Assembly (NCBI RefSeq): GCF_025961475.1
Contig: NZ_JAOQNS010000003.1
Coordinates: forward strand, 134,501 to 198,500
Length of the DNA: 64,000 nt
From: Rhodobium gokarnense
Lineage (GTDB): Bacteria; Pseudomonadota; Alphaproteobacteria; Rhizobiales; Rhodobiaceae
Direction: 5' to 3'
Of this stretch, positions 12,165-41,892 are shown piece by piece; position 1 is the first letter of the stretch, and the number at the start of each line of letters is the position of its first letter. Made by a program: the position numbers and the translations under genes. The notes under the pieces were generated by a model. The model searched no databases, had not been told where the DNA came from, and was given only the letters and a program-made list of their open reading frames with translations.

Positions 12165-13553
12165 TCAGTTGGTCCGCATTTCGCGCGCGTCCTCCGGTGC
12201 GGCGATCTGCGCACGTTCCGAAATCCGCAGCCGCCGCATCTTGCGCCACAGCGTGGTGCGGTCGATGCCGAGATATTTCGCGGCGAGCGACTTGTTGCCA
12301 CCGGCCCGCGCCAGCGCCGTCTGGATCTGCACCCTTTCGTCCGCCTCCGACGGCCGCGCCGCCGGCTTCACGCTGACCACCGGCAGGTGGTCGAAGTTGC
12401 GGATGTCGTGCGGCAGGCTCTCCGGCACGATAACGTTGTCGACACAGCAGATCAGCGCGTGCTCGATCGCCGTCTCCATCTCCCGCACATTGCCCGGCCA
12501 GGGATAGTCGATGAGCAGCCGCCGTGCCTCGGGCGAGTAGCTGAAGTCGCGCGGGTAGCCGCGTTCGGCCAGCTTGTCGCAGAAATGGGCAAGGAGCAGC
12601 GGGATGTCGCCCGGCCGCTCGCGGATCGGCGGCACGGTGATCGGGAACACCGCAAGACGATAATAGAGATCGGCGCGGAAATCGCCGGCCTCCACCAGGC
12701 CGCGCAGGTTGCGGTTGGACGCGGTGATGATCCGGACGTCGGCCGTCACCGGCGTGTCGGACCCGACCGGCTCGAACGCCCCGTCCTGCAGCGCCTTCAG
12801 GAGCTTGGTCTGCAGATGGGCCGGCAGCGCCGAGACCTCGTCGAGGAACAGGGTGCCGGTATCGGCCGCCTTCAGCTTGCCCGGCCGCTCGCCGTTGATC
12901 TCGCCGAGGGCGCCGCGGGCATGGCCGAAGAGTTCCGCCTCAAGCAACGGCTCCGGCGTCGAGGCGCAGTTGAACTCCACGAACGGGCGCCGCGAGCGGT
13001 TCGACAGCCGGTGCAGGAGCCGCGCGATATGGGTCTTGCCGGTGCCCGTCTCGCCCTGGATCAGCACCGGCGCCTGCATCGGCGCCACCCGCTCGACCCG
13101 CTCCAGGATCTCCATCATCGTCGGGTCCTTGGTGACGAGGTCGCCGCTGGAGCGCGAAAGCAGCGTTTCGAGGCGTCGCTCGTCGGTCTTGTCGCGCAAA
13201 ATGACGAGCCTGAGATTGCCCTGGGTGTCGCAGGCGCGACAGCAGTGGAACTCCAGATCCCGCATCTCGCCGCGCGCATTGATACGCATTTCGAACTGTA
13301 TGAGATTCGGGGTCATGGCGCTTTCCGCCTGCGCCGGCGCCCGTTCCAGTACCCTGTCCAGCGCATCCTTGAGATCGACGCCGCGGATGTCGGCGAGCGA
13401 CTGCAGCGGTCCGGCCCCGGGCGCCACCAGCAGTTCGGCGGCCGCCGGGTTCTGGTAGAGGACCGTCCCCTGGCGGTCCGTCAGGAGAACGCCCTCGTCG
13501 ATATAGGATACGATAGCTTCGAGCAGAGGAACGAGATCGTCGATCTCCCTCAT
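12165..13553 (-). CDS. Fis-family AAA+ transcriptional regulator with PAS domain and altered GAFTGA loop
   Basis: The protein has 462 residues. An N-terminal PAS-like domain (about 8-125: EAIVSYIDEGVLLTDRQGTVLYQNPAAAELL) has Cys104, Cys105 and Cys108 in FHCCRACDT. The bacterial enhancer-binding AAA+ domain follows, with Walker A GETGTGKT at 167-174, Walker B LFLDEV at 235-240 and the R-finger region. The Fis helix-turn-helix is GGNKSLAAKYLGIDRTTLWRKMRRL. Where GAFTGA should be, after ELFGH, the sequence is GALGEI (214-219). Regulators with this change often cannot contact sigma-54 and act with sigma-70 instead. It is divergent from the SCP2/RND cluster, its likely target; the ligand is unknown. 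Confidence 0.85.
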   Translation of the reverse strand: MREIDDLVPLLEAIVSYIDEGVLLTDRQGTVLYQNPAAAELLVAPGAGPLQSLADIRGVDLKDALDRVLERAPAQAESAMTPNLIQFEMRINARGEMRDLEFHCCRACDTQGNLRLVILRDKTDERRLETLLSRSSGDLVTKDPTMMEILERVERVAPMQAPVLIQGETGTGKTHIARLLHRLSNRSRRPFVEFNCASTPEPLLEAELFGHARGALGEINGERPGKLKAADTGTLFLDEVSALPAHLQTKLLKALQDGAFEPVGSDTPVTADVRIITASNRNLRGLVEAGDFRADLYYRLAVFPITVPPIRERPGDIPLLLAHFCDKLAERGYPRDFSYSPEARRLLIDYPWPGNVREMETAIEHALICCVDNVIVPESLPHDIRNFDHLPVVSVKPAARPSEADERVQIQTALARAGGNKSLAAKYLGIDRTTLWRKMRRLRISERAQIAAPEDAREMRTN

Positions 13554-13631
13554 GGACTGCCCTTCCCTTGTTTCGGACCGTTTTCGGCGGTCCGGGTCCC
13601 TCCAAATCGGCGCGCTTCTGTGGCGCGTTCC

Positions 13632-13650
13632 TGTTGCATCATATGCAACA
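13632..13650. promoter_or_regulatory. Palindromic operator candidate TGTTGCAT-N3-ATGCAACA
   Basis: Two perfect eight-base arms flank CAT. The same half-site recurs at least four times up to base 13781, including the small palindrome GTTGCAGCAAC at 13744-13754. Repeated spaced palindromes upstream of a gene divergent from a Fis-type regulator are what binding sites of such a regulator look like. The pairing of site with protein is inference. Confidence 0.55.
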
Positions 13651-13806
13651 TTTTCTAATCAACGCAACAGTACGAAACAGACACCATCGCAATTTCCGGT
13701 GTCAATTCAAACAGCTTCTATTGATTAATCGCAACGGCCTCCTGTTGCAGCAACTGCTGCAGCGCGCTGCATCCCGCAACATAAAAGCATTAGTATTTTC
13801 AATGAC

Positions 13807-13835
13807 TTGCCATATGCCAACTTCTTTGCTTAGAT
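13807..13835 (+). promoter_or_regulatory. Possible sigma-70 promoter for the SCP2/RND operon
   Basis: TTGCCA at 13807-13812 is followed after 17 bases by TTAGAT (13830-13835), a fair match to the housekeeping consensus. It lies about 70 bases before the first gene and just downstream of the repeated half-sites. This fits a sigma-70-type activation by a regulator that lacks GAFTGA, but weak matches of this kind are frequent in AT-rich DNA. Confidence 0.35.
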
Positions 13836-13902
13836 ATTTCTAAAATAAGCATGTGACGAACAACGGACATGCCATAAGCCGCTTTCAAGAGGGAGGATTG
13901 AG

Positions 13903-14298
13903 ATGGCTGACTTGTTTTCCGCCGAGTGGATGGCGAGCTTCCAGAACGCGTGGAACGCCGAGCCGGACCTGTCCGGCGAACTGGCCAAGATCGGGTTCAA
14001 CTCCAACATCGGTTACGGCTTCAAGGGCGAGGACGCCCCGCGCGGCATTCTGGTCGTGGAAAACGGCGTCGCCACCAGCGCCGGCGCCTATGCCGGCCAG
14101 CCGCTGAACTGGGACCTCAGGGCCGACGCCGCCACCTGGCAGGGCTGGATCTCCAAGCCGCCGGGCATGATGGGCCTCGGCATGGCCTACACCTCCAAGA
14201 AGCTGCAATTCGCGGTCGGCGACTACGCCGCGATGATCAAGGACCCGCGCATGGCCGGTCCGTTCATGAAAAGCTTTTCAGTGATGGCGCGCGTCTGA
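13903..14298 (+). CDS. Small SCP2-like (sterol carrier protein 2 fold) protein
   Basis: This soluble 131-residue protein has no signal peptide. LFSAEWMASFQNAWNAEPDLSGELAKIGFN, the WDLRADAATWQGWI segment and the late KKLQFAVGDYAAMIKDPRM (the family's characteristic Gx(K/L)x..GD) fit the SCP2 lipid-binding fold. Such proteins bind acyl or other hydrophobic ligands. Its ribosome site AGGGAGG is optimal. The stop overlaps the start of the RND adaptor gene by one base, so it is translationally coupled to an efflux pump. A role delivering or sensing a hydrophobic pump substrate is inference. Confidence 0.6.
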   Translation: MADLFSAEWMASFQNAWNAEPDLSGELAKIGFNSNIGYGFKGEDAPRGILVVENGVATSAGAYAGQPLNWDLRADAATWQGWISKPPGMMGLGMAYTSKKLQFAVGDYAAMIKDPRMAGPFMKSFSVMARV

Positions 14299-15467
14299 TG
14301 ACCCTGACCCTGCCGCAAAAACGGGTGCTGGCGGTGTGCGCGGCGCTCCTTGCCGCGTCCACGACCGTTCCGGCCGCCGCACAGGAGCGCTACGTGACTG
14401 CCGACGTCTCCGAAGTCGGCAGCACGTCGCTGATCGGCGGCACGGTCATCCCCTACAAGGAAGTGGTGCTGTCGGCGATGGTGCCGGGCCAGGTCCGCCT
14501 GCTTGCCGGCCGCGAGGGCGACGCCTTCCAGCAGAACGCGCTGATGGTGCAGATCGACGACGCCGACCTGCAGGCCCGCCGGCGCTCCGCCGTCGCCGCC
14601 CTGCAGGCGGCCGAGGCCGCGCTCCGCCAGGCCCAGGTGCAGTACAACCGCGAACTGATCTCACCGCAGATCAACCGTGGCATGTCGCGCTCCACCGGCA
14701 TGGCGATGCCGCAGATGTTCGACACCTTCTTCGCCCGGCCGTTTTCCAGTGGCGTCGGCGCCAGCAATCCCTGGGTGGAGCGCTATGCCGACCTGCACAG
14801 CCAGCAAAGCGGCATGGAGCAGGCCCAGAGCCAGATCATGCAGGCCCGGGCGCAGCTTGAAGAGATCGACACCAAGATCCGCGATGCCCGCGTCGTGGCG
14901 CCGTTCCCCGGCACCATCGTCGCCCGCATGATCGAGGAGGGCGACACCGTCCAGCCGGGCCAGCCGCTGCTGAAATTCGCCTATGTGGATTACCTGCGGA
15001 TCCAGGCCGAGGTGCCGGTCAAGCTGGTCGGCAACCTCTACCAGAACATGTTCGTGCCGGCCCGGCTCGACGTCGGCGGCGGCATCGAGGTCAACGCCCG
15101 CGTCGCCCAGATCTTTCCGGTCGCCGACCAGTCGCGCCACACCGTGACGGTGAAGTTCGACCTGCCGCGCGGCATCCCCGCCGCCCCCGGCGTCTATGCC
15201 GAACTGCGGCTGCCGAACGGCGCCGTCAACGCCACCTCGCTGCCGACCGTGCCGCGCTCGGCGCTGATCCAGCGCGGCAGCCTCTTCGGTGTCTTCGTGC
15301 GCGGCAGCGACGGCGAGCCGACGCTCAAGATGGTGCGCGTCGGCGGCGACGCCGGCGACGACCGGGTGACCATCCTCTCCGGCCTGAAGGGCGGCGAGGA
15401 AGTGGTCGTCAACCCGACGGCGAGCACAGGGCGCAGGCCGAACGCCCGCGCCGAGACGACCGACTGA
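14298..15467 (+). CDS. RND efflux periplasmic adaptor (HlyD/MFP family)
   Basis: The 389 residues open with a signal peptide ending VPAAAQ. The order is typical of membrane fusion proteins: a beta-barrel and lipoyl half (GTVIPYKEVVLSAMVPGQV ... REGDAFQQNALMVQIDDADLQA), a coiled-coil hairpin of about 110 residues, the second lipoyl half (DARVVAPFPGTIVARMIEEGDTVQPGQPLLKF) and a membrane-proximal domain. The hairpin is interrupted by a Met/Phe/Ser-rich insert (GMSRSTGMAMPQMFDTFFAR). It joins the pump to an outer-membrane channel; no TolC-type gene is in the window. It lies 69 bases before the pump gene. Confidence 0.9.
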   Translation: MTLTLPQKRVLAVCAALLAASTTVPAAAQERYVTADVSEVGSTSLIGGTVIPYKEVVLSAMVPGQVRLLAGREGDAFQQNALMVQIDDADLQARRRSAVAALQAAEAALRQAQVQYNRELISPQINRGMSRSTGMAMPQMFDTFFARPFSSGVGASNPWVERYADLHSQQSGMEQAQSQIMQARAQLEEIDTKIRDARVVAPFPGTIVARMIEEGDTVQPGQPLLKFAYVDYLRIQAEVPVKLVGNLYQNMFVPARLDVGGGIEVNARVAQIFPVADQSRHTVTVKFDLPRGIPAAPGVYAELRLPNGAVNATSLPTVPRSALIQRGSLFGVFVRGSDGEPTLKMVRVGGDAGDDRVTILSGLKGGEEVVVNPTASTGRRPNARAETTD

Positions 15468-15536
15468 CTGCAATGACAATGCGCGCAGGCGGGCCAACCG
15501 CCGCGACCAAACGGGATGGAAACAGGGTCGCCGACA

Positions 15537-18500
15537 ATGGCTGACACGAACGACACCACGACCGGATGCAGTGCCAACGGCAATGGCAAGAATGGCAAGG
15601 GCGAGCACGTCCACGCCCCCGGCCTTGCCGGCTCGATGGCGCGCACCTTCATCCATTCGCCGCTGTCGCCGCTGTTCCTGGTCTGCTGCCTGGCCGCCGG
15701 CATCCTCGGCCTCGCCTTCACGCCGCGCCAGGAAGACCCGCAGATATCCGTGCCGATGGTCGACATCTTCATCCAGTATGAAGGCGCCTCGGCGGCCCAG
15801 GTGACCAGCCTTGCCATCGATCCGCTGGAGCGGATGATGAGCGAGATCCCCGGCGTCAAGCACGTCTATTCCGCCTCCCAGCGCGGACAGGGCATGGTCA
15901 CCGTGGAGTTCGACGTCGGCGAGAAGATGGAACCCTCGCTGGTCAAGCTCTACGACAAGCTGTTCTCCAATCTCGACAAGATCCCGCCCGGCGTCTCCGA
16001 GCCGCTGGTCAAGCCGAAGGGCGTCGACGACGTGCCGGTGGTGGCGCTGACCCTGTGGTCGGAAAGCCTCGACGACGCCGCCCTTCGCCTCGTTGCCCTG
16101 GAACTGGTGCAACGCCTGAAGGAAGTGCCGAACACCTCCCAGAGCTTCATCGTCGGCGGCCGGTCGGAAGAGATGCGGGTGGAAATCCAGCCCGAGCGCC
16201 TCTCCGGCTTCGGCATCAGCATCGACCAGGTCGCCGGCGCCATCACCTCGGCCAACGAGAAGAAGCGCGTCGGCTACTCCGAGATCGACGGCACCAGCTT
16301 CAACGTCTATTCCGGCACCTTCCTGAAGCACGCCTCCGATCTCGAACACATCATCGTCGGCACCTATAACGGCAGCCCGGTCTACCTGCGCGACGTCGCC
16401 AAGGTCACCGAAGGCGCCGGCGAGGCGACCAACAGCGTCCAGTATTTCACCGGCCCGGCCTGGGCCGAGAGCGGCGCGCCCTCCGCCGCCAGCGTCCCCG
16501 ACGGCGCGCCCGCCGTCACCATCGCCATCGCCAAAAAACCCGGCAGCAACGGCGTCACCGTCGCCGATGCCGTCCTCGACAAGGTCGAGCAGCTCAAGGG
16601 CCGGATCATTCCGGGCAATGTGGAAATCGCCGTCACCCGCAATTACGGCGAGACCGCCAACGACAAGGTCAACGAGCTGATCGTCAAGCTGTTCGTGGCA
16701 ACCGGCGCCGTCACCCTGCTGATCTGGCTGTTCCTCGGCATCCGCGCGGCGCTCGTCGTCCTCATCGTCATCCCGGTGGTGATCCTGATCACCGTCTTTT
16801 CCGCCTGGATCCTCGGCTACACGATCGACCGGGTGTCGCTGTTCGCGCTGATCTTTTCCATCGGCATCCTGGTCGACGACGCCATCGTCGTCGTGGAGAA
16901 CATCTACCGCCGCTGGCTCCTGAAGGGCGAGGTCGACACCCCGACCACCATCGACGCCGTACGCGAGGTCGGCAACCCGACGATCCTCGCCACCTTCACG
17001 GTCATCGCCGCGCTCCTGCCGATGGGCTTCGTCTCCGGCATGATGGGCCCCTATATGGAGCCGATCCCGGCGCTCGGCTCGGTCGCGATGCTGTTCTCGC
17101 TGATCGCCGCCTTCCTGTTCACGCCCTGGCTCGCCTACCGCATCCGCCCGTCGCTGGCGAAGCTCCACAAGGCCCAGGAAGCCGAGCACCGCCAGAGCGA
17201 GGCCCTCGGCCGCTTCTACCGCCGCATCCTGACGCCGTTCATCGAGAGCCCGGCCAAGGGCCGCATGTTGCGGATCGGCATCTGGCTCGTCTTCGCCCTC
17301 TCCTGCGTCCTCTTCTACACCACGGACGTGGCGGTGAAGATGCTGCCCTTCGACAACAAGCCGGAATTCAACGTCGTCGTGAACATGCCCGACGGCACGG
17401 CGCTGGCCGAGACCGCCAATGTCACCCAGAGGTTCGTCGACGAGATCCTGAAGATAGACGAGGTGACCGCCGTCCAGAGCTATGCCGGCACCTCCTCGCC
17501 GTTCAATTTTAACGGCCTGGTGCGCCATTACTATCTGCGCCAGCAGCCGTGGCAGGCGGATATCCAGGTGCAACTCCTCGACAAGGGCGACCGCGCCCGC
17601 TCCAGCCACCAGATCGCCGCCGAGACCCGGAAAATCCTGACGCCGATCGCCGAACGGCTGGGCGCGCGCATCGCCGTCGTCGAAATGCCGCCGGGACCGC
17701 CGGTGCTGCAGACCCTCGTTGCCGAGGTTTACGGCCCGACCGAGGACATCCGCGTCCAGGTCGCCAAGGATCTGACGAGGATCTTCGAAGAGGCGCCGAG
17801 CGTCGTCGACGTCGATAACTATCTGGACGATCCGCACGAGCGCTGGCTGTTCGAGATCGACCGCCAGAAGGCCCTGCGCGAAGGCGTCTCCATCAAGGAC
17901 ATCAACCGCCAGCTCGGCATGGCGCTCGGCGGCTACAAGCTGGGCGACGCCAAGCTCGGCCACGAGCTGGAGCCGCGCTACATCGTCCTGCAGGCACCGC
18001 TCAACGTCCGCAGCCAGATCGCCGCCCTCGGCGAGTTACCGATCCGCACGGCAAGCGGCAATTTCGTGCCGCTGTCGGAGCTCGGCCGCTTCACCGCCGT
18101 GCCCCAGGACAAGACCGTCTACCACAAGGACCTGAGGCCGCTCGAATACGTCACCGGCGACGTCGCCGGCCGCCTCGGCGCGCCGATCTACGGCATGTTC
18201 GCCGTCGGCGACCTCCTTGCCGACTACACCCCGCCGGACGGCGGCACGCTTGCGGCTGCCTGGGTCGGCCCGCCGACCGACGGCTTCCAGTCGGCGTTCG
18301 AGTGGACCGGCGAATGGACGGTCACCTACGAGACGTTCCGCGATATGGGCATCGCGTTTGCCGCCGCCATGGTCCTCATCTACATGCTGGTGGTCTGGGA
18401 GTTCGGCAATTTCCGCCTGCCCGGCATCATCATGGCGCCGATCCCGCTGACCCTCATCGGCATCGTCCCCGGCCACTGGCTGCTCGGCGCGGAATTCACC

Positions 18501-19649
18501 GCCACCTCCATGATCGGCTTCATCGCGCTCGCCGGCATCATCGTCCGCAACTCCATCCTGCTCGTCGACTTCTCGCGCCAGGCGGTGGAGAACGACGTGC
18601 CGGTGACAGACGCCGTGGTCCAGGCCTGCCGCACCAGGACGCGGCCGATCATGATCACCGCGCTCGCCCTCGTCGCCGGCTCCAGCGTCATCATCACCGA
18701 CCCGATCTTCCAGGGCATGGCGATCTCGCTGATGTTCGGCGGCATGGTCTCGACGCTGCTGACGCTGGTGGTCATCCCGCTCGCCTGCGTGCGCACCCGC
18801 CAGGCGATCGTCCAGAGCGTCGAATATTCCAGCGGCAATGGCTTCGGCGACGCCGCCGCAAGCGCCGCAGCCATGCCGATCAACGCCGAAGAGGCCGCGG
18901 AAAACGCCCGGGCGACTGCCAATCCGGCCACCGCCGAACCGCAGCGCCGCGGTCTTTTTAGCCGCATCGCCGAAAGCACCCCCGTGCAGACGGCGAAGAT
19001 GACGCTGACCATGGGCTTTTATGCCCTTCGCGCCATGCCCTATTTCGCCTGGCTCGCCATCAAGGAAGCGGGCAAGGGGCTGTTCGCCCGCAAGGAAAAG
19101 CCTGCCGCCCCCTTCACCCCGGCCAATCCTGCCCCGCCGGCCGCGGCGGCGGCACCCGCGGCAGCGACGCCCGCACCCCAGGCGCCGGTCACTCCCGCAC
19201 CGCAGGCGGCCGCCCAGCCCTATGTCGCCCCGCCCCCCCAAGCGGCCCCGGCGCCCGCAGCGCCGCAGGCACCAGCACCCGCAGTCCCCGCGCCGGCAGC
19301 GCCGCAGCAAAGCGTTTCCGAGCCGACCGTGCCGCCGATGCAGACTCCGGCCGAGGAACCGCCGATGCCGACCGGCCCGCAAGGCACCGGGCCCGCCACG
19401 GTACCCGCCGCCGCAGAGACAGAGACCGTCGTCGCCGATCCCGCGCCGGCACCGGCCAAGTCGGCCGCCGCCAAGCGGCCCGCCCGCCGCGCCGTCTCCA
19501 AGCGCACCACGGCCCGCACGGCATCGAAGGCAGGGACGGAGGCCGGCGCCAAGGCGAAGAAGGCAACGACCGCCCGGACGCAGAAAAAGCCGGCACCGAA
19601 GACGCCGGACGCCAGAGCGACGGCCAGGGAGGACGAAGATGTATCCTGA
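15537..19649 (+). CDS. RND efflux pump permease with long Ala/Pro and Lys-rich C-terminal tail
   Basis: This 1370-residue inner-membrane transporter belongs to the AcrB/HAE superfamily. It has the first helix after SMARTFIHSPLSPLFLVCC, two large periplasmic loops, and the proton-relay Asp pair in SIGILVDDAIVVVENIYRR. The second half ends at IIVRNSILLVDFSRQA and MVSTLLTLVVIPLACV. About 270 residues follow the last canonical helix: a hydrophobic segment (MTLTMGFYALRAMPYFAWLA), a long Ala/Pro run, then a basic stretch like histone H1 (AKRPARRAVSKRTTARTASK) ending acidic. I preferred the ATG at 15537, with an AGGG-type site 9 bases ahead; 15516 is possible. It overlaps the next gene by 11 bases. 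Confidence 0.88.
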   Translation: MADTNDTTTGCSANGNGKNGKGEHVHAPGLAGSMARTFIHSPLSPLFLVCCLAAGILGLAFTPRQEDPQISVPMVDIFIQYEGASAAQVTSLAIDPLERMMSEIPGVKHVYSASQRGQGMVTVEFDVGEKMEPSLVKLYDKLFSNLDKIPPGVSEPLVKPKGVDDVPVVALTLWSESLDDAALRLVALELVQRLKEVPNTSQSFIVGGRSEEMRVEIQPERLSGFGISIDQVAGAITSANEKKRVGYSEIDGTSFNVYSGTFLKHASDLEHIIVGTYNGSPVYLRDVAKVTEGAGEATNSVQYFTGPAWAESGAPSAASVPDGAPAVTIAIAKKPGSNGVTVADAVLDKVEQLKGRIIPGNVEIAVTRNYGETANDKVNELIVKLFVATGAVTLLIWLFLGIRAALVVLIVIPVVILITVFSAWILGYTIDRVSLFALIFSIGILVDDAIVVVENIYRRWLLKGEVDTPTTIDAVREVGNPTILATFTVIAALLPMGFVSGMMGPYMEPIPALGSVAMLFSLIAAFLFTPWLAYRIRPSLAKLHKAQEAEHRQSEALGRFYRRILTPFIESPAKGRMLRIGIWLVFALSCVLFYTTDVAVKMLPFDNKPEFNVVVNMPDGTALAETANVTQRFVDEILKIDEVTAVQSYAGTSSPFNFNGLVRHYYLRQQPWQADIQVQLLDKGDRARSSHQIAAETRKILTPIAERLGARIAVVEMPPGPPVLQTLVAEVYGPTEDIRVQVAKDLTRIFEEAPSVVDVDNYLDDPHERWLFEIDRQKALREGVSIKDINRQLGMALGGYKLGDAKLGHELEPRYIVLQAPLNVRSQIAALGELPIRTASGNFVPLSELGRFTAVPQDKTVYHKDLRPLEYVTGDVAGRLGAPIYGMFAVGDLLADYTPPDGGTLAAAWVGPPTDGFQSAFEWTGEWTVTYETFRDMGIAFAAAMVLIYMLVVWEFGNFRLPGIIMAPIPLTLIGIVPGHWLLGAEFTATSMIGFIALAGIIVRNSILLVDFSRQAVENDVPVTDAVVQACRTRTRPIMITALALVAGSSVIITDPIFQGMAISLMFGGMVSTLLTLVVIPLACVRTRQAIVQSVEYSSGNGFGDAAASAAAMPINAEEAAENARATANPATAEPQRRGLFSRIAESTPVQTAKMTLTMGFYALRAMPYFAWLAIKEAGKGLFARKEKPAAPFTPANPAPPAAAAAPAAATPAPQAPVTPAPQAAAQPYVAPPPQAAPAPAAPQAPAPAVPAPAAPQQSVSEPTVPPMQTPAEEPPMPTGPQGTGPATVPAAAETETVVADPAPAPAKSAAAKRPARRAVSKRTTARTASKAGTEAGAKAKKATTARTQKKPAPKTPDARATAREDEDVS

Positions 19650-21009
19650 TCGCTTGAGGTCGACCCTCCTCGTCGGCACCGCCGCCATCGCTGTCCTCGG
19701 CTTTTCCCTCATCGACCGGGAGGCAACGGCCCTCGACCGGTCCCCCTCCGCCCGGCCACACGTCGCCTCGACGCGCTACGACGCGCCGGCTGAGAAAATG
19801 CGACCGGCGACGATGACGCCGCGGCTCGGCGCACGCTACGGCATGCCCGCGACCAGCCGCGGCGCCACCCTCGCCCAGGTATCCGGCACCGCCGGCCAGT
19901 ACACCGACTATCCGCCGATCGGCTTCGATCCGGAACAGCTCGGCCGCCAGAATGCGAGCATCCCGTCATCGCACACGGGAAATCCCGCACAGCCGCAGTG
20001 GCCCAATCAGGACGCGTCTCCCAACGTCGCCACCTATCCGCCGACCGGCACCAACCCGGCCTATCCGCCGGTCGCTCCCGGCAACCGCACCGGCGCCTGG
20101 CAGCCGGGCGCCGCGCCGGCCGCCCAGCCGACGGCGCCCGCCTATCCGCAACCGGCCCCCGCCTACGGCCAGCAGCCCACCTACGGCCAGCAACCGCAGG
20201 CATATGGCCAGCCGCCGCAGGCATACGGACAACAGCCGGCCTATGGTCAGCAGCCCCCCGCGCAGCCGGCCCCCGCCTATGCAGTCCCGACCTATGGCGC
20301 GACGGGATATGGCGCAACGGCCTATCCGCAGCAGGCCTATCCGGCGCCGCAGCCCTACGCCGCACCCGCCTATCCGAACGCCGGCGGGACCTACGGCCAG
20401 GGGCAGGTGCCCGCGCCGACCTACGCGGCCCCCACCTACACGGCACCCGGTTATGCGGCACCGGGCTACACCGCCCCGGCCTATGGCGCGCCCGGGCAGA
20501 CCAATCCTTATCCGCAGCAATGGCAGGGCGGGCAGCAACGGCCCTATCCGAACGCCTATCCGGCGCCGCAATGGGGCGGCCAGTGGCGCCCCTACCCGCC
20601 GCAGGGCGGCAATCCGTTCGGTTACCGGCCGCAAGGCATGAACACGGCTCCCTATGGCGCGCCGCCGGCCTATGCCCCGGCGCGCCCGGCTACTCAGCCG
20701 ACACGCCCGGCACCGCGCTCCGACGGCAGCATGTGGGCGACCGACCGTGCCCCGAACCTTGCTGCCGCCAATCCCAACCCATTCGCGGCCGATGCCCGCC
20801 ACGCGGACTACGCACCCGTCGGCGGCTTTGCCTGGGAGACCGGCAACAACACGCAACAGGCATCCACCTGGCGCGCGTCGCCGGCGACGCGAACCGCCGC
20901 CGCCAACCCCTATTTCGGCGATTACGCGCCGACAGAGACCCGCAACCGCTGGCCGATCCACCGCCCCCATGTCGCAAGCGCCGGCATGTCCGGCTGGACC
21001 TACCGGTAG
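19639..21009 (+). CDS. Exported Pro/Gln/Tyr-rich low-complexity protein
   Basis: The 456 residues start with a signal-anchor-like N-terminus (LRSTLLVGTAAIAVLGFSLIDREATA). A disordered middle follows, dominated by degenerate repeats of PAYGQQP, PQAYGQP, TYGAT and APGYTAPAY. A more complex end contains SMWATDRAPNLAAANPNPFAADARH and a final WPIHRPHVASAGMSGWTYR. No known domain is recognised. A GGGAGG site lies 7 bases before the ATG, and the gene begins inside the end of the RND gene. Composition resembles prion-like or matrix-forming secreted proteins. Co-translation with the pump suggests an exported structural or surface component, but function is unknown. Confidence 0.8.
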   Translation: MYPDRLRSTLLVGTAAIAVLGFSLIDREATALDRSPSARPHVASTRYDAPAEKMRPATMTPRLGARYGMPATSRGATLAQVSGTAGQYTDYPPIGFDPEQLGRQNASIPSSHTGNPAQPQWPNQDASPNVATYPPTGTNPAYPPVAPGNRTGAWQPGAAPAAQPTAPAYPQPAPAYGQQPTYGQQPQAYGQPPQAYGQQPAYGQQPPAQPAPAYAVPTYGATGYGATAYPQQAYPAPQPYAAPAYPNAGGTYGQGQVPAPTYAAPTYTAPGYAAPGYTAPAYGAPGQTNPYPQQWQGGQQRPYPNAYPAPQWGGQWRPYPPQGGNPFGYRPQGMNTAPYGAPPAYAPARPATQPTRPAPRSDGSMWATDRAPNLAAANPNPFAADARHADYAPVGGFAWETGNNTQQASTWRASPATRTAAANPYFGDYAPTETRNRWPIHRPHVASAGMSGWTYR

Positions 21010-21023
21010 AAAGGCGTAAGGCA

Positions 21024-21752
21024 GTGACGCGCACCCCCACCATGCTGGCGATAACGGCGATGGCCCTTTTCGGGCCTGCGGACGGCGCCTTCGCCCAGGT
21101 GGCGACCAATCCCTGGACGACGCCGGCAGCACCTCCGGCGGCGACCGGCGGCAACCCGTTTTCCGGACGCAGCGCCTATGCCGCCCCGCAATATGCAACG
21201 CCGTACTACGGCGCCCCGGCGCCCGCCGCGCCGAACCCGGCCTATCCGCCCGCCGACAATGGACAGGCCGCGACGGCCTACGGCCAGCAGACCTATCCGG
21301 CCCAGCCCTATTCCGGTCAGGTCTATTCCGGGCAGCCCTATGCGAGCGCGCCGGGCTATGGCACGACGCCCTATTCCGCCGTACCGGCCTATCCGACACC
21401 CTATGCCGTTCCGGACTACCGGCCGGACGCAGGCACGACCGGCCAGCAGGCAACCACCGGCGATCCGGCCCTTTCGGGCTACGGCACCGGCAACGCCTAC
21501 GGCGCGCCCCTGACGGGCACGTTCGGCAATCCTTATTCCAGTCTTTATCCGGGAACCGGCGCCCTTGCCGGGCTTGGATACGGCATTCCGCTCACCGGCG
21601 GATACCTGCCGGGATTGGGCTTGGCAGCACCCGGGGGATGGCAGTCCCCCGGCTACTACGCAAGCCCGTATTCCGGCTCTCTGGCGCCCTTCTACACACC
21701 CTATGCGACCGGGTTGCCGGGCCTTGGCGGGCTCGGGCCCTACGGGATGTAG
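21024..21752 (+). CDS. Second exported Tyr/Pro/Gly-rich low-complexity protein
   Basis: The 242 residues start from a GTG with TAAGG upstream (MTRTPTMLAITAMALFGPADGAFAQ, a good signal peptide; an internal ATG at 21042 is the alternative). The mature part is rich in Tyr, Pro, Ala and Gly with repeats such as YSGQVYSGQPY and TPYYGAPAPA. It ends in a Gly/Leu/Tyr-rich stretch (GTGALAGLGYGIPLTGGYLPGLG). It shares the motif NPF(S/A) and the general composition of the preceding protein, so the pair may be diverged paralogues. It is 14 bases downstream and clearly in the same operon. No enzymatic domain is seen. Confidence 0.78.
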   Translation: MTRTPTMLAITAMALFGPADGAFAQVATNPWTTPAAPPAATGGNPFSGRSAYAAPQYATPYYGAPAPAAPNPAYPPADNGQAATAYGQQTYPAQPYSGQVYSGQPYASAPGYGTTPYSAVPAYPTPYAVPDYRPDAGTTGQQATTGDPALSGYGTGNAYGAPLTGTFGNPYSSLYPGTGALAGLGYGIPLTGGYLPGLGLAAPGGWQSPGYYASPYSGSLAPFYTPYATGLPGLGGLGPYGM

Positions 21753-21857
21753 CGGGAACGCACAACGTGAAACGGGCATGACGCCCGAAAGTCTCGGGAG
21801 AACTCCCTCGTCTCGAGGCTCAAGATCCAGGGAGGGAGAACCGTGAGGAGAGTAGAT

Positions 21858-22247
21858 ATGAAAAAGTTGCTTACCGCAACTGCACTGGCCGGCTTCCTCG
21901 GCCTCGTCGGCACCGCCGTCACCACCAACGACGCGGCCGCCTGGTGGGGCTGGGGCCCGGGCTGGGGCAACGGCACCGGCGACGGGAATTTCTCCATGAA
22001 CTTCTCGGGCCGCGGCAACGGCTACGGCTATGGCCATCCCGGCTATGGCGGTTATGGCGGCCCCTGGGGCGGTTATCCGGGCGGCTGGGGTGGCTATCCG
22101 GGCGGCTGGGGCGGATATCCCGGCTACGGCTATGCCCCCTATGGCTATGCGCCCCCGGCCTATGGCGCCCCGTACGGCTATCCCCCGCAGATGCAGCAGC
22201 AGCCCCAGCAGCCGCAGCAGCAGCAGCAGTCGGGCCAGAGCCAGTAA
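21858..22247 (+). CDS. Sulfur-globule-type Gly/Tyr/Trp-rich exported protein
   Basis: The 129 residues open with a signal peptide (MKKLLTATALAGFLGLVGTAVTTNDAAA), then WWGWGPGWGNGTGDGNFSMNFSGRGNGYGYG. Then come near-perfect seven-residue repeats GYPGGWG (DNA unit of 21 bases, 22071-22124) and a Gln-rich tail. The WWGWG start, the NFSMNFSGRG block and Gly/Tyr/Pro repeats recall the small structural proteins that coat periplasmic sulfur globules in purple sulfur bacteria (Sgp/CV family). That role is inference here; it could instead be a surface or matrix protein. The ATG has GAGGAG upstream; a GTG at 21843 is the alternative. Confidence 0.62.
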   Translation: MKKLLTATALAGFLGLVGTAVTTNDAAAWWGWGPGWGNGTGDGNFSMNFSGRGNGYGYGHPGYGGYGGPWGGYPGGWGGYPGGWGGYPGYGYAPYGYAPPAYGAPYGYPPQMQQQPQQPQQQQQSGQSQ

Positions 22248-22448
22248 GCCGGTCCGGCGCGAGCGGATCCCGGTCCCGTTTCAGGCAACCGGCGCCCTGG
22301 CGCCGCCGGACCGGGACCGCTTGCGCCGCCCACCCGATCTTGCGACCCGCCGCAGAGCGTTGCGGCGGGCTCGCGCCACGGGGCGTTTCACCGTGACGAC
22401 GAAGCGCCCTGTCCGCTCGATCTCTGCAACGACAGGAAAGGCGAGGCT

Positions 22449-23321
22449 ATGCAGATCAAGGGTACAGCCACCGGACTGCTGATGGGAGCGCTGAGCCTTC
22501 TCAGTGCCGGCGCAGTCGCGGCGGCAGAGACCGCCGGAGCCACCACCGAATTCACCGCCGATGCGGTCATCACCATGCCCCAGCGCGGCGTCCAGAGCGG
22601 CACGCTCTACGTCTCGGCAGACGGCGTGCGCATGGATTCGCTCCACCAGGGCCGCCGGGTGATCGAGATCCGCATGCCCAAGGAGGGCATTGCCCGCATC
22701 GTCTTCCCCGACGAGCGCACTTATATGGAAATGCAGTTGCCGCCCTCCGGCGCCGGCGCATCGATGGGGCCGCAGACCGTGCCGTGCGAGCCATCCGACG
22801 ACGTCGGCTGCGAGAAGGTCGCCACCGAACAGCTCGGCGGCACCGAGGTCGAGGTCTGGGAGGTGACGCCCAAGGGCGCGCCGAAGCCGATCCGCATCTG
22901 GTGGGACGCCAACCGCAAGATGCCGATGCGCCAGGCGATGCCCGACGGCTCGGTCATGCAGGCCGCACTCCAGAACACCGAGGATTTTGGCGGCCGCACC
23001 GTGGAGCGCTGGGAGGTCTCGTTCCGCTCGCCGGACGGGCGCTATGTCACTGGCACCATCCTCTACGATCCGGAATACGCCCTCAGCGTCTATGAGAACA
23101 TGCCCGGCGGCATGGTCCGCGAGCTGCGCAACATCCGGCCCGGCAAACCCGACGCCGCGCTGTTCGAGGTGCCGGCAGGGTTCAGCAAGATCGAGCCGCC
23201 GCGCCCGCCGGCCCCGCCGCAGGGGCAGGGCATGCCGCAAGGCCAGCAGATGCCGCCCCCGGGCTACGGCCAACCGCCGGCGGGGTATGGACAACCGCCG
23301 CAGATGCCGGCGCAGCAATGA
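22449..23321 (+). CDS. Exported DUF4412-like protein with PQG-rich tail
   Basis: The 290 residues carry a signal peptide (LLMGALSLLSAGAVAAAETA). A beta-rich domain (about 30-240: FTADAVITMPQRGVQSGTLYVSADGVRMD, RVIEIRMPKEGIARIVFPDERTYMEMQ, VEVWEVTPKGAPKPIRIWWD) resembles DUF4412, a LolA/LolB-like fold for hydrophobic ligands. Two cysteines stand in VPCEPSDDVGCEKV. The last 50 residues are Pro/Gln/Gly-rich (GYGQPPAGYGQPP), echoing the two low-complexity proteins encoded upstream. A strong terminator follows about 95 bases later, closing the cluster. A role as a periplasmic carrier for the same hydrophobic material is inference. Confidence 0.65.
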   Translation: MQIKGTATGLLMGALSLLSAGAVAAAETAGATTEFTADAVITMPQRGVQSGTLYVSADGVRMDSLHQGRRVIEIRMPKEGIARIVFPDERTYMEMQLPPSGAGASMGPQTVPCEPSDDVGCEKVATEQLGGTEVEVWEVTPKGAPKPIRIWWDANRKMPMRQAMPDGSVMQAALQNTEDFGGRTVERWEVSFRSPDGRYVTGTILYDPEYALSVYENMPGGMVRELRNIRPGKPDAALFEVPAGFSKIEPPRPPAPPQGQGMPQGQQMPPPGYGQPPAGYGQPPQMPAQQ

Positions 23322-23415: not shown

Positions 23416-23453
23416 GCCGGCGCGATCTCACCCGTCGCGCCGGCATTTTTGTT
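23416..23453 (+). terminator. Rho-independent terminator closing the RND cluster
   Basis: Ten-base arms GCCGGCGCGA and TCGCGCCGGC surround a nine-base loop and are followed by ATTTTTGTT. It ends three bases before the stop of hypX on the other strand and may serve both directions. Confidence 0.9.
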
Positions 23454-23456
23454 GCC

Positions 23457-25133
23457 TCAGGCTTTCGTGGAGCGATGGCGCGCCAGCGTCAGCGGCGTCC
23501 GCGACTTCGGCACCTTGCGCAGGAAGTTGTTGCGGGCGACGTGGTAGCTCGGATCGAAGCCGTAGAAATTGCGCTTCATCTTCTCGATCTCCTCGGCGCG
23601 ATAGGCGGCGAGCGGTTTGTCCGCCTCGTCCCGCGCCCGCGCCATGCGCTTGTCCCAGATCCGCCGGGCGAGGCCCGGGGTGGCGGCGAGCGCCAGCGCC
23701 TCCTGCAGGATGTCGTCCTCCAGCGCGACCGGATCCGACGTCAATGCCTTGTCGACAAGCCCGAGCCGCACCGCCTCGGCAACGCCCATGGGCAGTCGCG
23801 CCGCCGCGATCCGCTCCGCATTCTGAGGGCCGACCCGCTTCGGCAGGAGATAGGTCCAGTATTCGGACCCGTAGAGATTGCCCATGTCCTTGTAGTGGGG
23901 ATTGAGGACGACGCCGTCGCGCGCCCAGACCTGATCGGCGGCGAGCGCCAGGAAGACACCGCCGGCCCCGGCATTGCCGCGAAGCGCGGAGACCACCAGC
24001 CGGTCGGTTGTGGTGATGATCGCCCGGCAGAGGTCGTCCATCGCCTCGATATTGGCGAGCGACTCGTCGGCCGGACTATCGGCGGCCTCGATGACGCCGA
24101 GATGGAGCCCGTTCGACCAGGTGTCCGGCCCGCCGGTCAGCACCAGCACCTTGGTCGGCTGCGACAGCGCCTCCACATAGGCGTCGCGCAGACGCAGGCA
24201 CTGATCGGTCGACATCGCCCCGTTGTAGAAGACGAACTCCAGGAACCCGACGTCGCCCGCCTCGGTATAGGTGATCTCGCGATAGCCGTCCGGCACGTCC
24301 GGCAGCGCCGCGGCCCGTCGCCCGAGCACCCGCACCGCGGGCAGCTTCAGGGCGCCGTCGTCAGTCGCCCTCAGATGGCCGATCCAGATCGCCCCGGTGC
24401 GCGTTGCCCGCGCGACGGCCGTGCCGGAGCGGGCGATCAGCGCGCCCGCTTCGCCCGTCAGGCCCTCGGCCGGATGGACGTCGTAATGGTAGAAGGGCGT
24501 TCCCTCGATCTCGTCGAGCAGGCCCGGCGATCCATCGGCCGAGCGGATCTTGCGCAGCACCCTGAGGGTCGAATCCCGCTGCCAGTCGATGGTCCGGTCG
24601 CCCTGACGGCAGGGCGGATTGGCGACGCCCGTCACCTCCCAGTCGCTGCCGCGCGAGCGCCGCTCCGGCGAAAAGTCGCCGATGGCGATCATCGCCAGCG
24701 CCTCCATCACCGCCTCGACGGCCGCCTCCGTCACCTCGTTGCGGTAAAGGCTCGATTTGGCCGCCGGCCGCATGGCGAACTCGCGCCAGGCCCAGACCGG
24801 TCCGGCATCGAGCTCGGCCTCGGCCTGCAGGACCGTCACGCCCCAGATCTTTTCGCGCCGGAGGATCGCCCAGTCGAGCGCCGACGGGCCGCGGTCGCCG
24901 CGCACGCCCGGATGGACGATGAGGCAGGGCACGGCGGTGAAGACGTCCTCCGGGATCGCCCGCTTCAGGAACGGCGCCAGCACTACGTCGGGCTTGAAGA
25001 GGGCGACCGCCTCGCGGGTCACCGCATCGTTGATGTCGAACTCGACCGAGACCTCCATGCCGTGCTCGCGCAGTTCCACGAAGAGCCGCTGGGCGAGGCT
25101 GTTGAAGCTGTGGACGAGGAAGAGAACGCGCAT
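23457..25133 (-). CDS. hypX: Hydrogenase maturation protein HypX (HoxX), CO-ligand synthesis
   Basis: The two-domain protein has 558 residues. The N-terminal half is like formyl-THF transferases (MRVLFLVHSFNSLAQRLFVELREHG; CLIVHPGVRGDRGPSALDWAI; VLQAEAELDAGPVWAWREF). The C-terminal half is like enoyl-CoA hydratases (VLVLTGGPDTWSNGLHLGVIEAA; SALRGNAGAGGVFLALAADQVWA; NPHYKDMGNLYGSEYWTYLLP). HypX makes the CO ligand of [NiFe]-hydrogenase from formyl-tetrahydrofolate under aerobic conditions. The start is set at 25133, where homology begins. The frame is open 58 codons further upstream, but that stretch is not HypX-like. It lies near hypABCDE but is separated from them by a diguanylate cyclase gene. 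Confidence 0.9.
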   Translation of the reverse strand: MRVLFLVHSFNSLAQRLFVELREHGMEVSVEFDINDAVTREAVALFKPDVVLAPFLKRAIPEDVFTAVPCLIVHPGVRGDRGPSALDWAILRREKIWGVTVLQAEAELDAGPVWAWREFAMRPAAKSSLYRNEVTEAAVEAVMEALAMIAIGDFSPERRSRGSDWEVTGVANPPCRQGDRTIDWQRDSTLRVLRKIRSADGSPGLLDEIEGTPFYHYDVHPAEGLTGEAGALIARSGTAVARATRTGAIWIGHLRATDDGALKLPAVRVLGRRAAALPDVPDGYREITYTEAGDVGFLEFVFYNGAMSTDQCLRLRDAYVEALSQPTKVLVLTGGPDTWSNGLHLGVIEAADSPADESLANIEAMDDLCRAIITTTDRLVVSALRGNAGAGGVFLALAADQVWARDGVVLNPHYKDMGNLYGSEYWTYLLPKRVGPQNAERIAAARLPMGVAEAVRLGLVDKALTSDPVALEDDILQEALALAATPGLARRIWDKRMARARDEADKPLAAYRAEEIEKMKRNFYGFDPSYHVARNNFLRKVPKSRTPLTLARHRSTKA

Positions 25134-25491
25134 GCGGGCAGGGAACTCCGGAACCGTTGGGCGAACGCGACAGATTGGTCGAGTAGATCGCATCTCTTCT
25201 GCACCACGTTCCCCGGTATTATGCAACTGACCTGCAGCCTGGACCGCGCGGAGGTATCCGAGCCAGGTTTCGGTTTGCGGACCATCAGCCCGGGACGGGA
25301 AAACCAAAGCGCGGTGATGTCATGACATCACCGCGCCGAACTTTCGAACCGGATCGACGAGACGAGGATTTTAGGGTGGCTGCAGACGTTCCCGGAGCGG
25401 CGCGAAAGATCGCCCGGTGAGGGGGGCGATACATCGGCCTGGCTATTTTGCCTTGCCCTACTCTGGCACGCGGCGTCAAAAGGTCAGAACG
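25134..25491. other. Spacer between hypX and the diguanylate cyclase gene
   Basis: These 358 bases have no convincing gene apart from the unused upstream extension of the hypX frame. They contain the 28-base palindrome at 25309-25336. No promoter element for hypX is obvious. Confidence 0.5.
25300..25336 (-). terminator. 28-base perfect palindrome with T-rich tail, probable terminator
   Basis: Bases 25309-25336 read the same on both strands: GCGCGGTGATGTCA followed directly by its reverse complement. As RNA this gives a 12-pair stem with a CATG loop. Leftwards it is followed by TTTGGTTTT, so it probably ends transcription of the diguanylate cyclase gene before hypX. A protein-binding operator for hypX is the alternative. 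Confidence 0.6.
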
Positions 25492-26307
25492 TCAGGCAAT
25501 TTTCGCCATCGTATCGACGGCTGCCGGCTCGGCGATCCCGACTGCAACACGATTGCGCCCCAAACGCTTGGCCTCATAGAGCTTCTTGTCCGCAGCAGCC
25601 AACAGGTCATCGACCGAACCGGCAAACGGGTTCTCCGCAACACCGAAACTCGCCGTTACCTTGACGTCGACATTGAGCGACGCAAAGTCCAGTTTCGCGA
25701 TCTGTCGGCGCATGTTTTCGGCAGTGCTGGCCGCGTCTCCGGCGCCCGCATTGATCAAGAAGACACCGAACTCCTCGCCGCCAAGGCGGCCAACAATGTC
25801 CGTATTCCGGCTTCCCTCCTTGATCGCGTTCGCCACTGCGACAATGACCCGATCGCCGACACCGTGACCGAAGCGATCATTGATGCTCTTGAAGTAATCT
25901 ATGTCCACCACGATGAATGACGTCTTGAAATGGTGACGGTGCGAGAGAGAAAATTGACGCTCCGCCTGGTCGAAAAAGGCACGCCGATTTGCGAGCCCGG
26001 TCAACGGATCTTCTGCCGCCAACCGCGCAACGGTCTGTTTCTGCAGGAAAAGCCGATATTGGAGCTGACACAATCTGTAGCTGACCGTCGGCGCTGCCAA
26101 TAGGGGCACAAGGACCGCCGGGATGAGCGCGAAGGTTAATTGATGCCACCTGGAGAATATTATTAGAATGATCGATGTCACAACAACGGAGACGACAAGC
26201 GAGAAGACGGTCCATAAAACAACTTGAACGGCTATATCCCGCTTTGTTTCAATTTTTTGGCGCATAGAATCTAACAGCGGCGATTGATTTTCAATTCGGA
26301 CAGTCAA
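25492..26307 (-). CDS. Membrane-bound diguanylate cyclase (GGDEF)
   Basis: The protein has 271 residues. Two transmembrane helices (about 28-51 and 58-79) precede a GGDEF domain starting at DPLTGLANRRAFFDQAERQ. The active-site motif is GGEEF (176-180), and an RxxD inhibitory site (RNTD, 167-170) stands five residues before it, as in feedback-controlled cyclases. The metal-binding segment VDIDYFKSINDRFGH is intact, so it should make cyclic di-GMP from two GTP. There is no sensor domain beyond the short membrane hairpin. Its GC content is visibly lower than that of its neighbours. It sits between hypE and hypX on the same strand, with no evident link to hydrogenase. Confidence 0.92.
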   Translation of the reverse strand: MTVRIENQSPLLDSMRQKIETKRDIAVQVVLWTVFSLVVSVVVTSIILIIFSRWHQLTFALIPAVLVPLLAAPTVSYRLCQLQYRLFLQKQTVARLAAEDPLTGLANRRAFFDQAERQFSLSHRHHFKTSFIVVDIDYFKSINDRFGHGVGDRVIVAVANAIKEGSRNTDIVGRLGGEEFGVFLINAGAGDAASTAENMRRQIAKLDFASLNVDVKVTASFGVAENPFAGSVDDLLAAADKKLYEAKRLGRNRVAVGIAEPAAVDTMAKIA

Positions 26308-26507
26308 GCTTCTCCGGTTATTTTTCGGTAAAATTCAGCTTCAAGAACCGACATTTCTCCAAAAAATAGTCGAATAATCGGGGTGTTTTCTTGTCGCATA
26401 CTGGCTTTTCGCCAAGGATTTGTGTTGCCCTTTTTCTTCGAACAGCCTGGCGCAGGCGAAAGGCGTGTGGCCTGTCGGTCCGCAAGAGCGGGGCAAATCG
26501 GACGCCC

Positions 26508-39683: not shown

Positions 39684-40922
39684 CTACGAATAGGCCGGCG
39701 CGAAGGCGGCTTGCGGGTCTTCCACCGGACCGTCCGCGCCCCAATAGGGCGAGAGCTTCCGAAGCTGGGCGACGATCGGCGGGATCGCCTCAACGACCCG
39801 GTCGATCTCGGCCTCGGTGTTGTGGCGCGACAGCGAGAAGCGGATCGAGCCATGGGCGGCCGTATAGGGGATGTCCATCGCCCGCATCACATGGGACGGC
39901 TCCAGCGAGCCGGAGGTGCAGGCCGAGCCCGACGACGCCGCGATGCCGAGCTTGTTCATCAGCATCAGGATCGCCTCGCCCTCGATGAACTCGAACGCGA
40001 TGTTGCAGGTGTTCGGCAGCCGGTGGTCCGGATCGCCGGTCACGAAGCAATGCGGCACCGCGGAAAGAATCCCCTCCTCCAGCCGGTCGCGCAGGTCGCG
40101 GACCCGCGTCTGCTCCTCGTCCATGTGCTGGAGCGCCAATTCCGCGGCCTTGCCGAGACCGACGATGAAGGCGGAGTTCTCCGTGCCAGCGCGCCGGCCG
40201 CGCTCCTGGTGGCCGCCGCGCAGCATCGGCCGGAACCGGACGCCGCGGCGCAGGTAAAGAACGCCGATGCCCTTCGGGGCGTGCAGCTTGTGGCCGGAGA
40301 GCGACAGCATGCTGATCGCGGTCTTTTTGAGATCGATCGGCACCTTGCCGACGGCCTGCACCGCATCGGTGTGAAACATGACCCCGGCGTCGTAGGCCAT
40401 CTCGGCCATCTTCTTTACCGGGAACAGGGTCCCCGTCTCGTTGTTCGCCCACATGACGGAGACGACAGCGACCTTATCGGACAAAAGCGCCTGGTATTCG
40501 CGAAGGTCCAGCCGGCCCTTCATGTCCACCTTCAAATAGTGGACGATGTAGCCGTCCTTTTCCAGGTGCTCGCAGAGCGCCAGCACCGCCGGATGCTCCA
40601 CATTCGTGGTGATGATCTCGCGCCGGTTCGGCTGCGCCCGCAGCGCGGACAGGATCGCCGTGGAGTCCGATTCCGTGCCGCAGGACGTGAAGATGATCTC
40701 GCTGTCATGGGCAGCGCCGATCAGCTCCTGGATCTGCCCCCGCGCCGTCTTCAGGGCCTGGCCGACCCGATTGCCGAACTGGTGCATGGACGACGGATTG
40801 CCGAACTGCTCGGTGAAATAGGGCAGCATCGCCGTCACCACCTCGTCGTCGACACGGGTGGTCGCGTTGTTGTCGAGATAGATACCGTCCATCGTCGTCC
40901 CCATCGGTCTATGCGCGGTCAT
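39684..40922 (-). CDS. nifS: Cysteine desulfurase NifS
   Basis: The 412-residue group I desulfurase contains [30 protein letters not shown], the PLP lysine in [11 protein letters not shown] (Lys212) and the active cysteine in [16 protein letters not shown] (Cys335). It mobilises sulfur from cysteine for clusters built on NifU. The start overlaps the nifU stop (ATGA). ATGs at 40904 and 40892 would remove the first 6 or 10 residues and are possible, since homology begins at [12 protein letters not shown]. Confidence 0.95.
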
Positions 40923-41857: not shown

Positions 41858-41892
41858 GGCGTCGTCTCTCTGCTGCTGAAGGAGGGGAGGCT

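What the first reader, a model, noticed from the sequence alone, without database searches (positions are those of the whole stretch)
12165..23321. Undescribed-looking export cluster: regulator, SCP2 protein, RND pump, low-complexity proteins and sulfur-globule-type protein
Seven rightward genes run as tightly spaced or overlapping units under one divergent regulator and end at one strong terminator. The set joins a cytoplasmic lipid-binding-fold protein, an RND adaptor and pump, two Pro/Gln/Tyr-rich secreted proteins, a Gly/Tyr/Trp protein like sulfur-globule coats, and a LolA-like exported protein with the same PQG tail. I know of no named system with this content. I propose that the pump and SCP2 protein handle a hydrophobic or elemental substance and that the low-complexity proteins package or coat it outside the cytoplasm.
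Basis: partly seen in the sequence, partly recalled or inferred. Interest (0 to 1): 0.78.

Follow-up and report, generated by a model that had tools for sequence, protein, structure and literature searches.

The report
Conserved sulfur-globule transport operon
Bacteria that burn sulfur through the reverse-Dsr pathway keep a little-noticed gene set, found here, that joins a fat-carrier protein, a membrane pump and the coat proteins of their sulfur storage granules, and it offers a first concrete candidate for the machinery that builds those granules.

Summary
The cluster is real. The window comes from a close relative of Rhodobium orientis. SCP2–MFP–RND, usually followed by Pro/Gly-rich secreted proteins, sulfur-globule proteins (SGP) and a LolA-fold carrier, recurs across Alphaproteobacteria, Gammaproteobacteria and Magnetococcales. 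Most members add a ParA ATPase; many gammaproteobacteria add a divergent dynamin-like GTPase. SCP2 is confined to carriers of the Dsr sulfur-oxidation key gene: own order 8/8 dsrA+ against 5/53 without SCP2 (p=4e-7), and 47/50 SCP2+ genomes elsewhere. Where the genes have separated (Chromatiaceae), both SCP2 and the pump subfamily are retained. Several relatives of the window SGP pass Pfam's SGP cut-off. Models show true SCP2 and LolA-type folds. The divergent regulator type comes with TGTTGC palindromes and a sigma-54 promoter before SCP2 (18/25, expected 0.03). The pump family carries an extra hydrophobic helix and a basic tail, usually ending RRGIRLK. Prior knowledge found: in A. vinosum, globule protein SgpD is encoded beside an exporter (PMC10386293). 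Best reading: a dedicated system that hands a hydrophobic cargo to periplasmic sulfur globules. Cargo and direction are not shown.

The parts
12165..13553 (-). sigma-54 enhancer-binding regulator (PAS, AAA+, HTH_8), divergent
   Evidence: Pfam PF00158 E 3e-60, HTH_8; the same divergent gene in about 25 of the loci collected by genome contigs
13632..13650 (.). palindrome TGTTGC-N7-GCAACA, probable upstream activating site of the regulator; further half-sites at 13664, 13743 and 13776
   Evidence: only match in the window, 0 in 100 shuffles; 2-7 half-sites per intergenic region in 25 loci, about 0.15 expected; half-site positions
13815..13829 (+). degenerate -24/-12-like element TGCCAACTTCTTTGC, 88 bp before the SCP2 start
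   Evidence: family consensus TGGCA[CT]N5TTGC present in 18/25 loci at this place; in the window the -24 GG is lost, so promoter use here is uncertain
13903..14298 (+). SCP2-fold protein, 131 aa, predicted cytoplasmic, no conserved Cys
   Evidence: AF2 pLDDT 95.3; Thermus SCP2 2cx7 Z 16.1; Cys count
14298..15467 (+). RND membrane-fusion (adaptor) protein
   Evidence: TIGR01730 149 bits
15516..19649 (+). RND pump, 1377 aa; DD in TM4 (SIGILVDDA), Arg at the usual TM10 Lys position
   Evidence: PF00873 E 5e-148; motifs
18786..19646 (+). C-terminal extension of the pump: extra hydrophobic helix at about 18993-19085, then a Pro/Ala/Lys-rich linker; family terminal motif RRGIRLK absent in this copy
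19639..21009 (+). Pro/Ala/Gln/Tyr-rich protein with N-terminal hydrophobic segment, 456 aa
   Evidence: no Pfam/NCBIfam hit
21024..21752 (+). Ala/Gly/Pro/Tyr-rich secreted protein, 242 aa, GTG start
   Evidence: no Pfam/NCBIfam hit
21858..22247 (+). sulfur-globule-type protein (Gly 28%, Tyr 11%, signal peptide, NFSMNFSGRG motif)
   Evidence: PF17228 E 1e-4, 23.6 vs cut-off 26.7 bits; orthologues in the same slot reach 31-69 bits; alignment A5
22255..22329 (+). strong RNA hairpin after the SGP gene (no T-run)
   Evidence: -59.8 kcal/mol, z -4.7
22449..23321 (+). exported LolA/RseB/LprG-fold protein (DUF4412-like) with Pro/Gln/Gly tail and an invariant Cys pair
   Evidence: AF2 pLDDT 82.9; LolA/EPDR1/LppX hits Z 8-12.7; alignment A4
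23416..23444 (+). intrinsic terminator
   Evidence: 11 bp stem + T-run

Best explanation
A dedicated, usually sigma-54-controlled accessory system of reverse-Dsr sulfur oxidisers that serves the periplasmic sulfur globule. Shown by sequence: conserved gene linkage; restriction to dsrA+ genomes; co-retention of SCP2 and the pump subfamily when unlinked; SGP-family coat genes in the cluster; lipid-carrier folds on the predicted cytoplasmic (SCP2) and exported (LolA-like) sides of the pump. Inferred: the cytoplasmic SCP2 protein binds a hydrophobic ligand non-covalently and offers it to the inner membrane; the proton-driven RND pump with its adaptor moves it to the periplasm; the LolA-like carrier takes it on to the growing globule, which the SGP and Pro-rich proteins coat. 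Cargo most likely a globule-specific lipid or organic cap of the sulfur chains, or polysulfane/S8 itself. In members that have them, ParA and the dynamin-like GTPase probably position the globule and shape its membrane pocket; the window genome has no close homologue of that ParA.
For: Gene order SCP2-MFP-RND-secreted low-complexity-SGP-LolA in Alphaproteobacteria, Gammaproteobacteria and Magnetococcales. dsrA association: 8/8 vs 5/53 in the own order, p 4e-7; alphaproteobacterial class sample: both SCP2+ genomes among the 6 dsrA+ of 385; 47/50 elsewhere. Own genome has a dsrABEFHCMK-like gene order, with dsrEFH marking the oxidative type (genes other than dsrA read by eye). 103/116 genomes of a family that includes Chromatiaceae have SCP2; where SCP2 is unlinked the over-57% pump subfamily is still present, while five dsrA+ SCP2- alphaproteobacteria show at most the 44-50% paralogue. 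SGP Pfam hits. Folds. Pump tree groups by class, so not a recent transfer. Literature: A. vinosum SgpD, 28-fold induced on sulfide and localised to globules, is encoded beside a hydrophobe/amphiphile exporter (PMC10386293).
Against: No cargo is known and direction is inferred from RND pumps in general. Sulfur is already made in the periplasm, so export of sulfur itself is not obviously needed. A few loci lack SGP or LolA-like genes. Whether the exporter beside sgpD belongs to this subfamily could not be checked (no named A. vinosum record at hand). Deleting sgpD had no phenotype (PMC10386293). No direct expression data for these operons were read.
Confidence: 0.55

Rival explanations
1. Sulfur retrieval: the system works inwards. 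Zero-valent sulfur mobilised from the periplasmic globule reaches the cytoplasm through or beside the pump, and SCP2 holds it before transfer to the Rhd/TusA/DsrE relay that feeds rDsr.
For: SCP2 is predicted cytoplasmic and confined to dsrA+ genomes; in Chromatiaceae it can stand away from the pump, as expected for a cytoplasmic sulfur-handling protein; how periplasmic sulfur enters the cytoplasm is an open question (own knowledge).
Against: RND pumps are known as exporters; SCP2 has no conserved Cys (57 of 80 have none), so it cannot act as a persulfide relay; many dsrA+ alphaproteobacteria lack it.
Confidence: 0.17
2. Envelope lipid transport: the set moves an ordinary or specialised lipid (hopanoid, quinone or similar) that the envelope or intracytoplasmic membranes of sulfide-exposed cells need; globule proteins are merely co-regulated neighbours.
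For: SCP2 and LolA/LprG/LppX folds are lipid carriers; UbiJ-SCP2 is a structural relative; RND-based lipid conduits are known (BstABC, PMC10942540).
Against: Strict dsrA association and SGP genes inside the cluster in three classes.
Confidence: 0.18
3. Detoxifying efflux: a pump expelling toxic polysulfides or organic sulfur compounds, expressed together with globule genes because both answer sulfide.
For: Pump and adaptor are of the multidrug type by sequence.
Against: No outer-membrane channel gene was recognised in the clusters; dedicated cytosolic and periplasmic carriers, ParA and dynamin partners do not fit simple efflux.
Confidence: 0.07
4. Hitch-hiking: the set is unrelated to sulfur and merely inherited with rDsr lineages.
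For: Pump tree follows class-level taxonomy.
Against: Sporadic presence within one order tracks dsrA exactly in one direction (p 4e-7), and SGP-family genes sit inside the cluster.
Confidence: 0.03

Closest known systems
Sulfur globule proteins SgpA/B/C/D of Allochromatium vinosum (Pfam SGP PF17228)
   Same: Exported, low-complexity, Gly/Tyr/Trp- or Pro-rich proteins; orthologues in this cluster pass the SGP cut-off; sgpD also lies beside an exporter gene (PMC10386293)
   Different: A. vinosum sgp genes are described as separate transcription units and no SCP2/LolA partners are named in the paper read; here the coat gene is in one gene cluster with pump and carriers
BstABC bacterial sterol transport (RND, periplasmic and outer-membrane-side carriers; Methylococcus, PMC10942540)
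   Same: RND pump plus dedicated carriers for a hydrophobic cargo
   Different: Different carrier families here (SCP2 and LolA fold), tied to rDsr, with globule coat proteins and, in many members, ParA/dynamin
MmpL/LprG-LppX lipid export of mycobacteria
   Same: RND pump and a LolA-like-fold lipid carrier (LppX Z 8.0)
   Different: No SCP2, no adaptor, no globule proteins (own knowledge)
UbiJ/UbiT and other bacterial SCP2 proteins
   Same: SCP2 fold (UbiJ Z 8.2, Thermus SCP2 Z 16.1)
   Different: No sequence-level Pfam or PDB match; linked to an RND pump and rDsr, not to ubiquinone synthesis
McdAB carboxysome positioning (ParA type)
   Same: ParA ATPase encoded next to proteins of an inclusion in most cluster members
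   Different: ParA not in the window's operon, and no close homologue of it in this genome; cargo is periplasmic, so a membrane-spanning link would be needed

Membership tests
Sulfur globule protein family (PF17228) | profile score above the gathering cut-off | tested here: inconclusive
   Window protein 23.6 vs 26.7 bits; five orthologues in the same slot pass, incl. a same-genus one at 54 bits
Sulfur globule protein family (PF17228) | Sec signal peptide and Gly/Tyr/Trp-rich mature part | tested here: met
   sequence and composition; signal peptide judged by eye
Sulfur globule protein family (PF17228) | localises to sulfur globules | not testable with these tools
   needs microscopy
SCP2 superfamily | SCP2 fold | tested here: met
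   Z 16.1 over 122 residues to 2cx7
SCP2 superfamily | binds a lipid or other hydrophobic ligand | not testable with these tools
   no binding data
HAE-type RND pump with adaptor | ACR_tran domain, DD proton-relay motif, MFP partner | tested here: met
HAE-type RND pump with adaptor | about 1050 aa, both ends cytoplasmic | tested here: not met
   subfamily is 1215-1485 aa with an extra hydrophobic helix and basic tail; topology of the tail not determined
HAE-type RND pump with adaptor | outer-membrane channel partner | tested here: inconclusive
   none recognised in the clusters; a TolC elsewhere in the genome not searched
LolA/RseB/LprG-like carriers | open beta half-barrel fold and export signal | tested here: met
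LolA proper (lipoprotein carrier) | LolA sequence family | tested here: not met
   only weak DUF4412 hit in Pfam, nothing in NCBIfam

The most novel reading that the evidence does not exclude
An undescribed biogenesis machine for a bacterial storage inclusion: a cross-envelope system (SCP2, RND pump with a tethering tail, LolA-like carrier, coat proteins, and in many members ParA plus dynamin) that builds, shapes and positions periplasmic sulfur globules.
Probability: 0.35. Interest if true: 0.88.

Novelty: new variant of a known kind. Interest (0 to 1): 0.74.

Why it matters
Sulfur globules are among the most visible inclusions of bacteria, yet beyond their coat proteins I found no described machinery for their assembly, and the route of sulfur between globule and cytoplasm is open (own knowledge). 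A conserved gene set limited to rDsr organisms gives named, deletable candidates, and its presence in Magnetovibrio, Sedimenticola and Chromatiaceae means it could be tested in cultivated, some of them genetically tractable, strains.

Tried and rejected
Generic multidrug pump: rejected as sole reading because of the dsrA restriction and linked carriers/coat genes. SCP2 as persulfide carrier: rejected, no conserved Cys. REG as a global sulfur regulator: perfect palindromes elsewhere in genomes with REG lie in unrelated or coding contexts in the cases inspected, so it looks local. Finding SgpD-like proteins near the pump of an A. tepidum-like genome by their proline pattern failed. Sequence search of the PDB with SCP2 gave only weak chance-level hits. 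The 'Halobacteria' hit (L047) groups with gammaproteobacteria in the pump tree, so it is probably a mislabelled bin.
Full report
What is there. Downstream of the divergent regulator the order is SCP2-like, RND adaptor, RND pump, two Pro-rich secreted proteins, a sulfur-globule-type protein and a LolA-like exported protein. Gaps are -1, 48, -11, 14, 105 and 201 nt. A terminator follows; a very strong hairpin without a T-run separates the SGP gene from the last gene and could set different expression levels. The window lies in a 5.1 Mb genome very close to Rhodobium orientis (97% identical pump).

Is it conserved? SCP2 homologues are rare in the class (2 of 385 alphaproteobacterial genomes; 8 of 61 order relatives) but 386 candidate stretches in the species-level genome collection encode a relative. 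Named carriers among the best 80 include Rhodobium, Magnetovibrio, Magnetospira, Magnetococcales, Sedimenticola, Thiodiazotropha, Thiohalobacter, Thiomargarita and other sulfur oxidisers. In most loci where the contig allows it, SCP2 is followed directly by the adaptor and pump; a dozen or so SCP2 genes stand alone, some as second copies. Of 37 loci with at least 3.8 kb after the pump, 26 have an SGP-type protein, 29 the LolA-like gene and 30 a ParA ATPase; nine have DUF302 and ten a small membrane coiled-coil protein. Sedimenticola/Chromatiaceae-type loci replace the regulator by a divergent dynamin-like GTPase. Gene calls in these loci are my own ORF picks by cross-locus similarity, not curated annotation.

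Link to sulfur. In the own order every SCP2+ genome is dsrA+ (8/8), against 5/53 of the others (Fisher p 4e-7). In the class sample dsrA occurs in 6 of 385, including both SCP2+ genomes. Of 50 SCP2+ genomes elsewhere 47 have dsrA hits; the three without are draft assemblies. In a family that includes Chromatiaceae 103 of 116 genomes have SCP2; of the 13 without, 9 lack dsrA too. The own genome carries dsrA and, by position and sequence read by eye, dsrBEFHCMK. In crown Chromatiaceae SCP2 sits alone, but the same genomes keep the pump subfamily (58-65% identity) in a cluster with adaptor, ParA, coiled-coil protein, usually the LolA-like gene and the dynamin-like GTPase. dsrA+ alphaproteobacteria without SCP2 have at most a 44-50% paralogue. 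Co-retention of unlinked partners argues for joint function. One such genome has a HiPIP 90% identical to the A. vinosum sequence I supplied from memory, so it is a close relative of that model organism.

Proteins. The SCP2 model (pLDDT 95) matches Thermus SCP2 at Z 16.1 and UbiJ at about 8. 57 of 80 homologues have no Cys, so binding must be non-covalent. The LolA-like model matches LolA, RseB, EPDR1 and LppX-type carriers; the family has an invariant Cys pair. SGP-slot proteins share a signal peptide, AWWG start and a GDFSMNFSGRG-like motif, and five of nine relatives scanned pass Pfam's SGP cut-off. The pump keeps the TM4 DD motif, has Arg where AcrB has Lys in TM10, and carries an extension found throughout the subfamily: an extra hydrophobic helix (54 of 59), a Pro/Ala/Lys-rich linker, and a terminal RRGIRLK motif (46 of 59 by a strict pattern; missing in the window copy). 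If the helix spans the membrane the tail would be periplasmic, if not cytoplasmic; this is not settled.

Regulation. In 25 loci with the divergent regulator, the intergenic region holds 2-7 TGTTGC/GCAACA half-sites (about 0.15 expected) and in 18 a strict sigma-54 -24/-12 element pointing to SCP2, 60-140 bp before it (0.03 expected; 0 on the other strand; 0 of 15 loci without the regulator). The window has the palindrome but a degraded -24 box. Perfect palindromes elsewhere in the same genomes lay in other contexts in the cases inspected, so the regulator looks dedicated.

What it does. The carriers flank a pump, the coat genes are in the same cluster, and the host pathway is fixed. The most economical reading is a system that delivers a hydrophobic component to the periplasmic sulfur globule. 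Cargo, direction and the role of the Pro-rich proteins are inferences. Alternatives (sulfur retrieval into the cytoplasm, general lipid transport, efflux, hitch-hiking) are weighed above.

Known or new. Full-text searches for the combination found no description (only open-licence papers are held). The nearest prior note is that sgpD of A. vinosum, encoding a globule-located protein strongly induced by sulfide, lies next to an exporter gene (PMC10386293); whether that exporter is of this subfamily was not tested. So the coat proteins are known, the conserved system around them appears not to be.

Noticed in passing
RND homologues in L022-L134, e.g. L067:11868-15836, L062:11918-15910: Pump C-terminus: extra hydrophobic helix, long Pro/Ala/Lys-rich linker and terminal RRGI[RK]LK motif conserved across gammaproteobacteria, Magnetococcales and many alphaproteobacteria; a likely tether or docking peptide. 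The Rhodobium-type copies lack the motif.
   Followed up: partly
L127:4516-5710 and most cluster loci: ParA/MinD-type ATPase and a small membrane coiled-coil protein encoded downstream of the pump, suggesting active positioning of sulfur globules
   Followed up: partly
L127:14864-16423, L067:8080-9615: Dynamin-like GTPase divergent from the cluster in Sedimenticola/Chromatiaceae types, next to nadA in many
   Followed up: no
G000:C11:118973-122119; L159:7822-11103: Second RND subfamily, about 45% identical and about 1100 aa, present beside the long one in many sulfur oxidisers and also in a dsrA- genome (G404)
   Followed up: no
window 22255-22329: Very stable hairpin between the SGP and LolA-like genes, possibly protecting the sgp mRNA or limiting read-through
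   Followed up: no
L160:10394-12457: Two tandem TauE-like permease genes (identified by eye) directly before dsrA in the own genome
   Followed up: no
window 23457-28702: Genes after the cluster, opposite strand: hypE and hypD (NCBIfam equivalogs), a GGDEF-like protein and a HypX-like protein (by eye), pointing to a hydrogenase locus next door
   Followed up: partly
window 39684-43718: NifS-type cysteine desulfurase and ModC ATPase, suggesting a nif/mod region in the same window
   Followed up: no
L042, L053, L065, L066, L073, L081, L096: SCP2 copies of 67-70% identity standing alone without adaptor or pump, some probably second copies; neighbours not analysed
   Followed up: no
L047: Contig filed as a Halobacteria archaeon carries the full gammaproteobacterial-type cluster; probably a mislabelled bin
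   Followed up: partly
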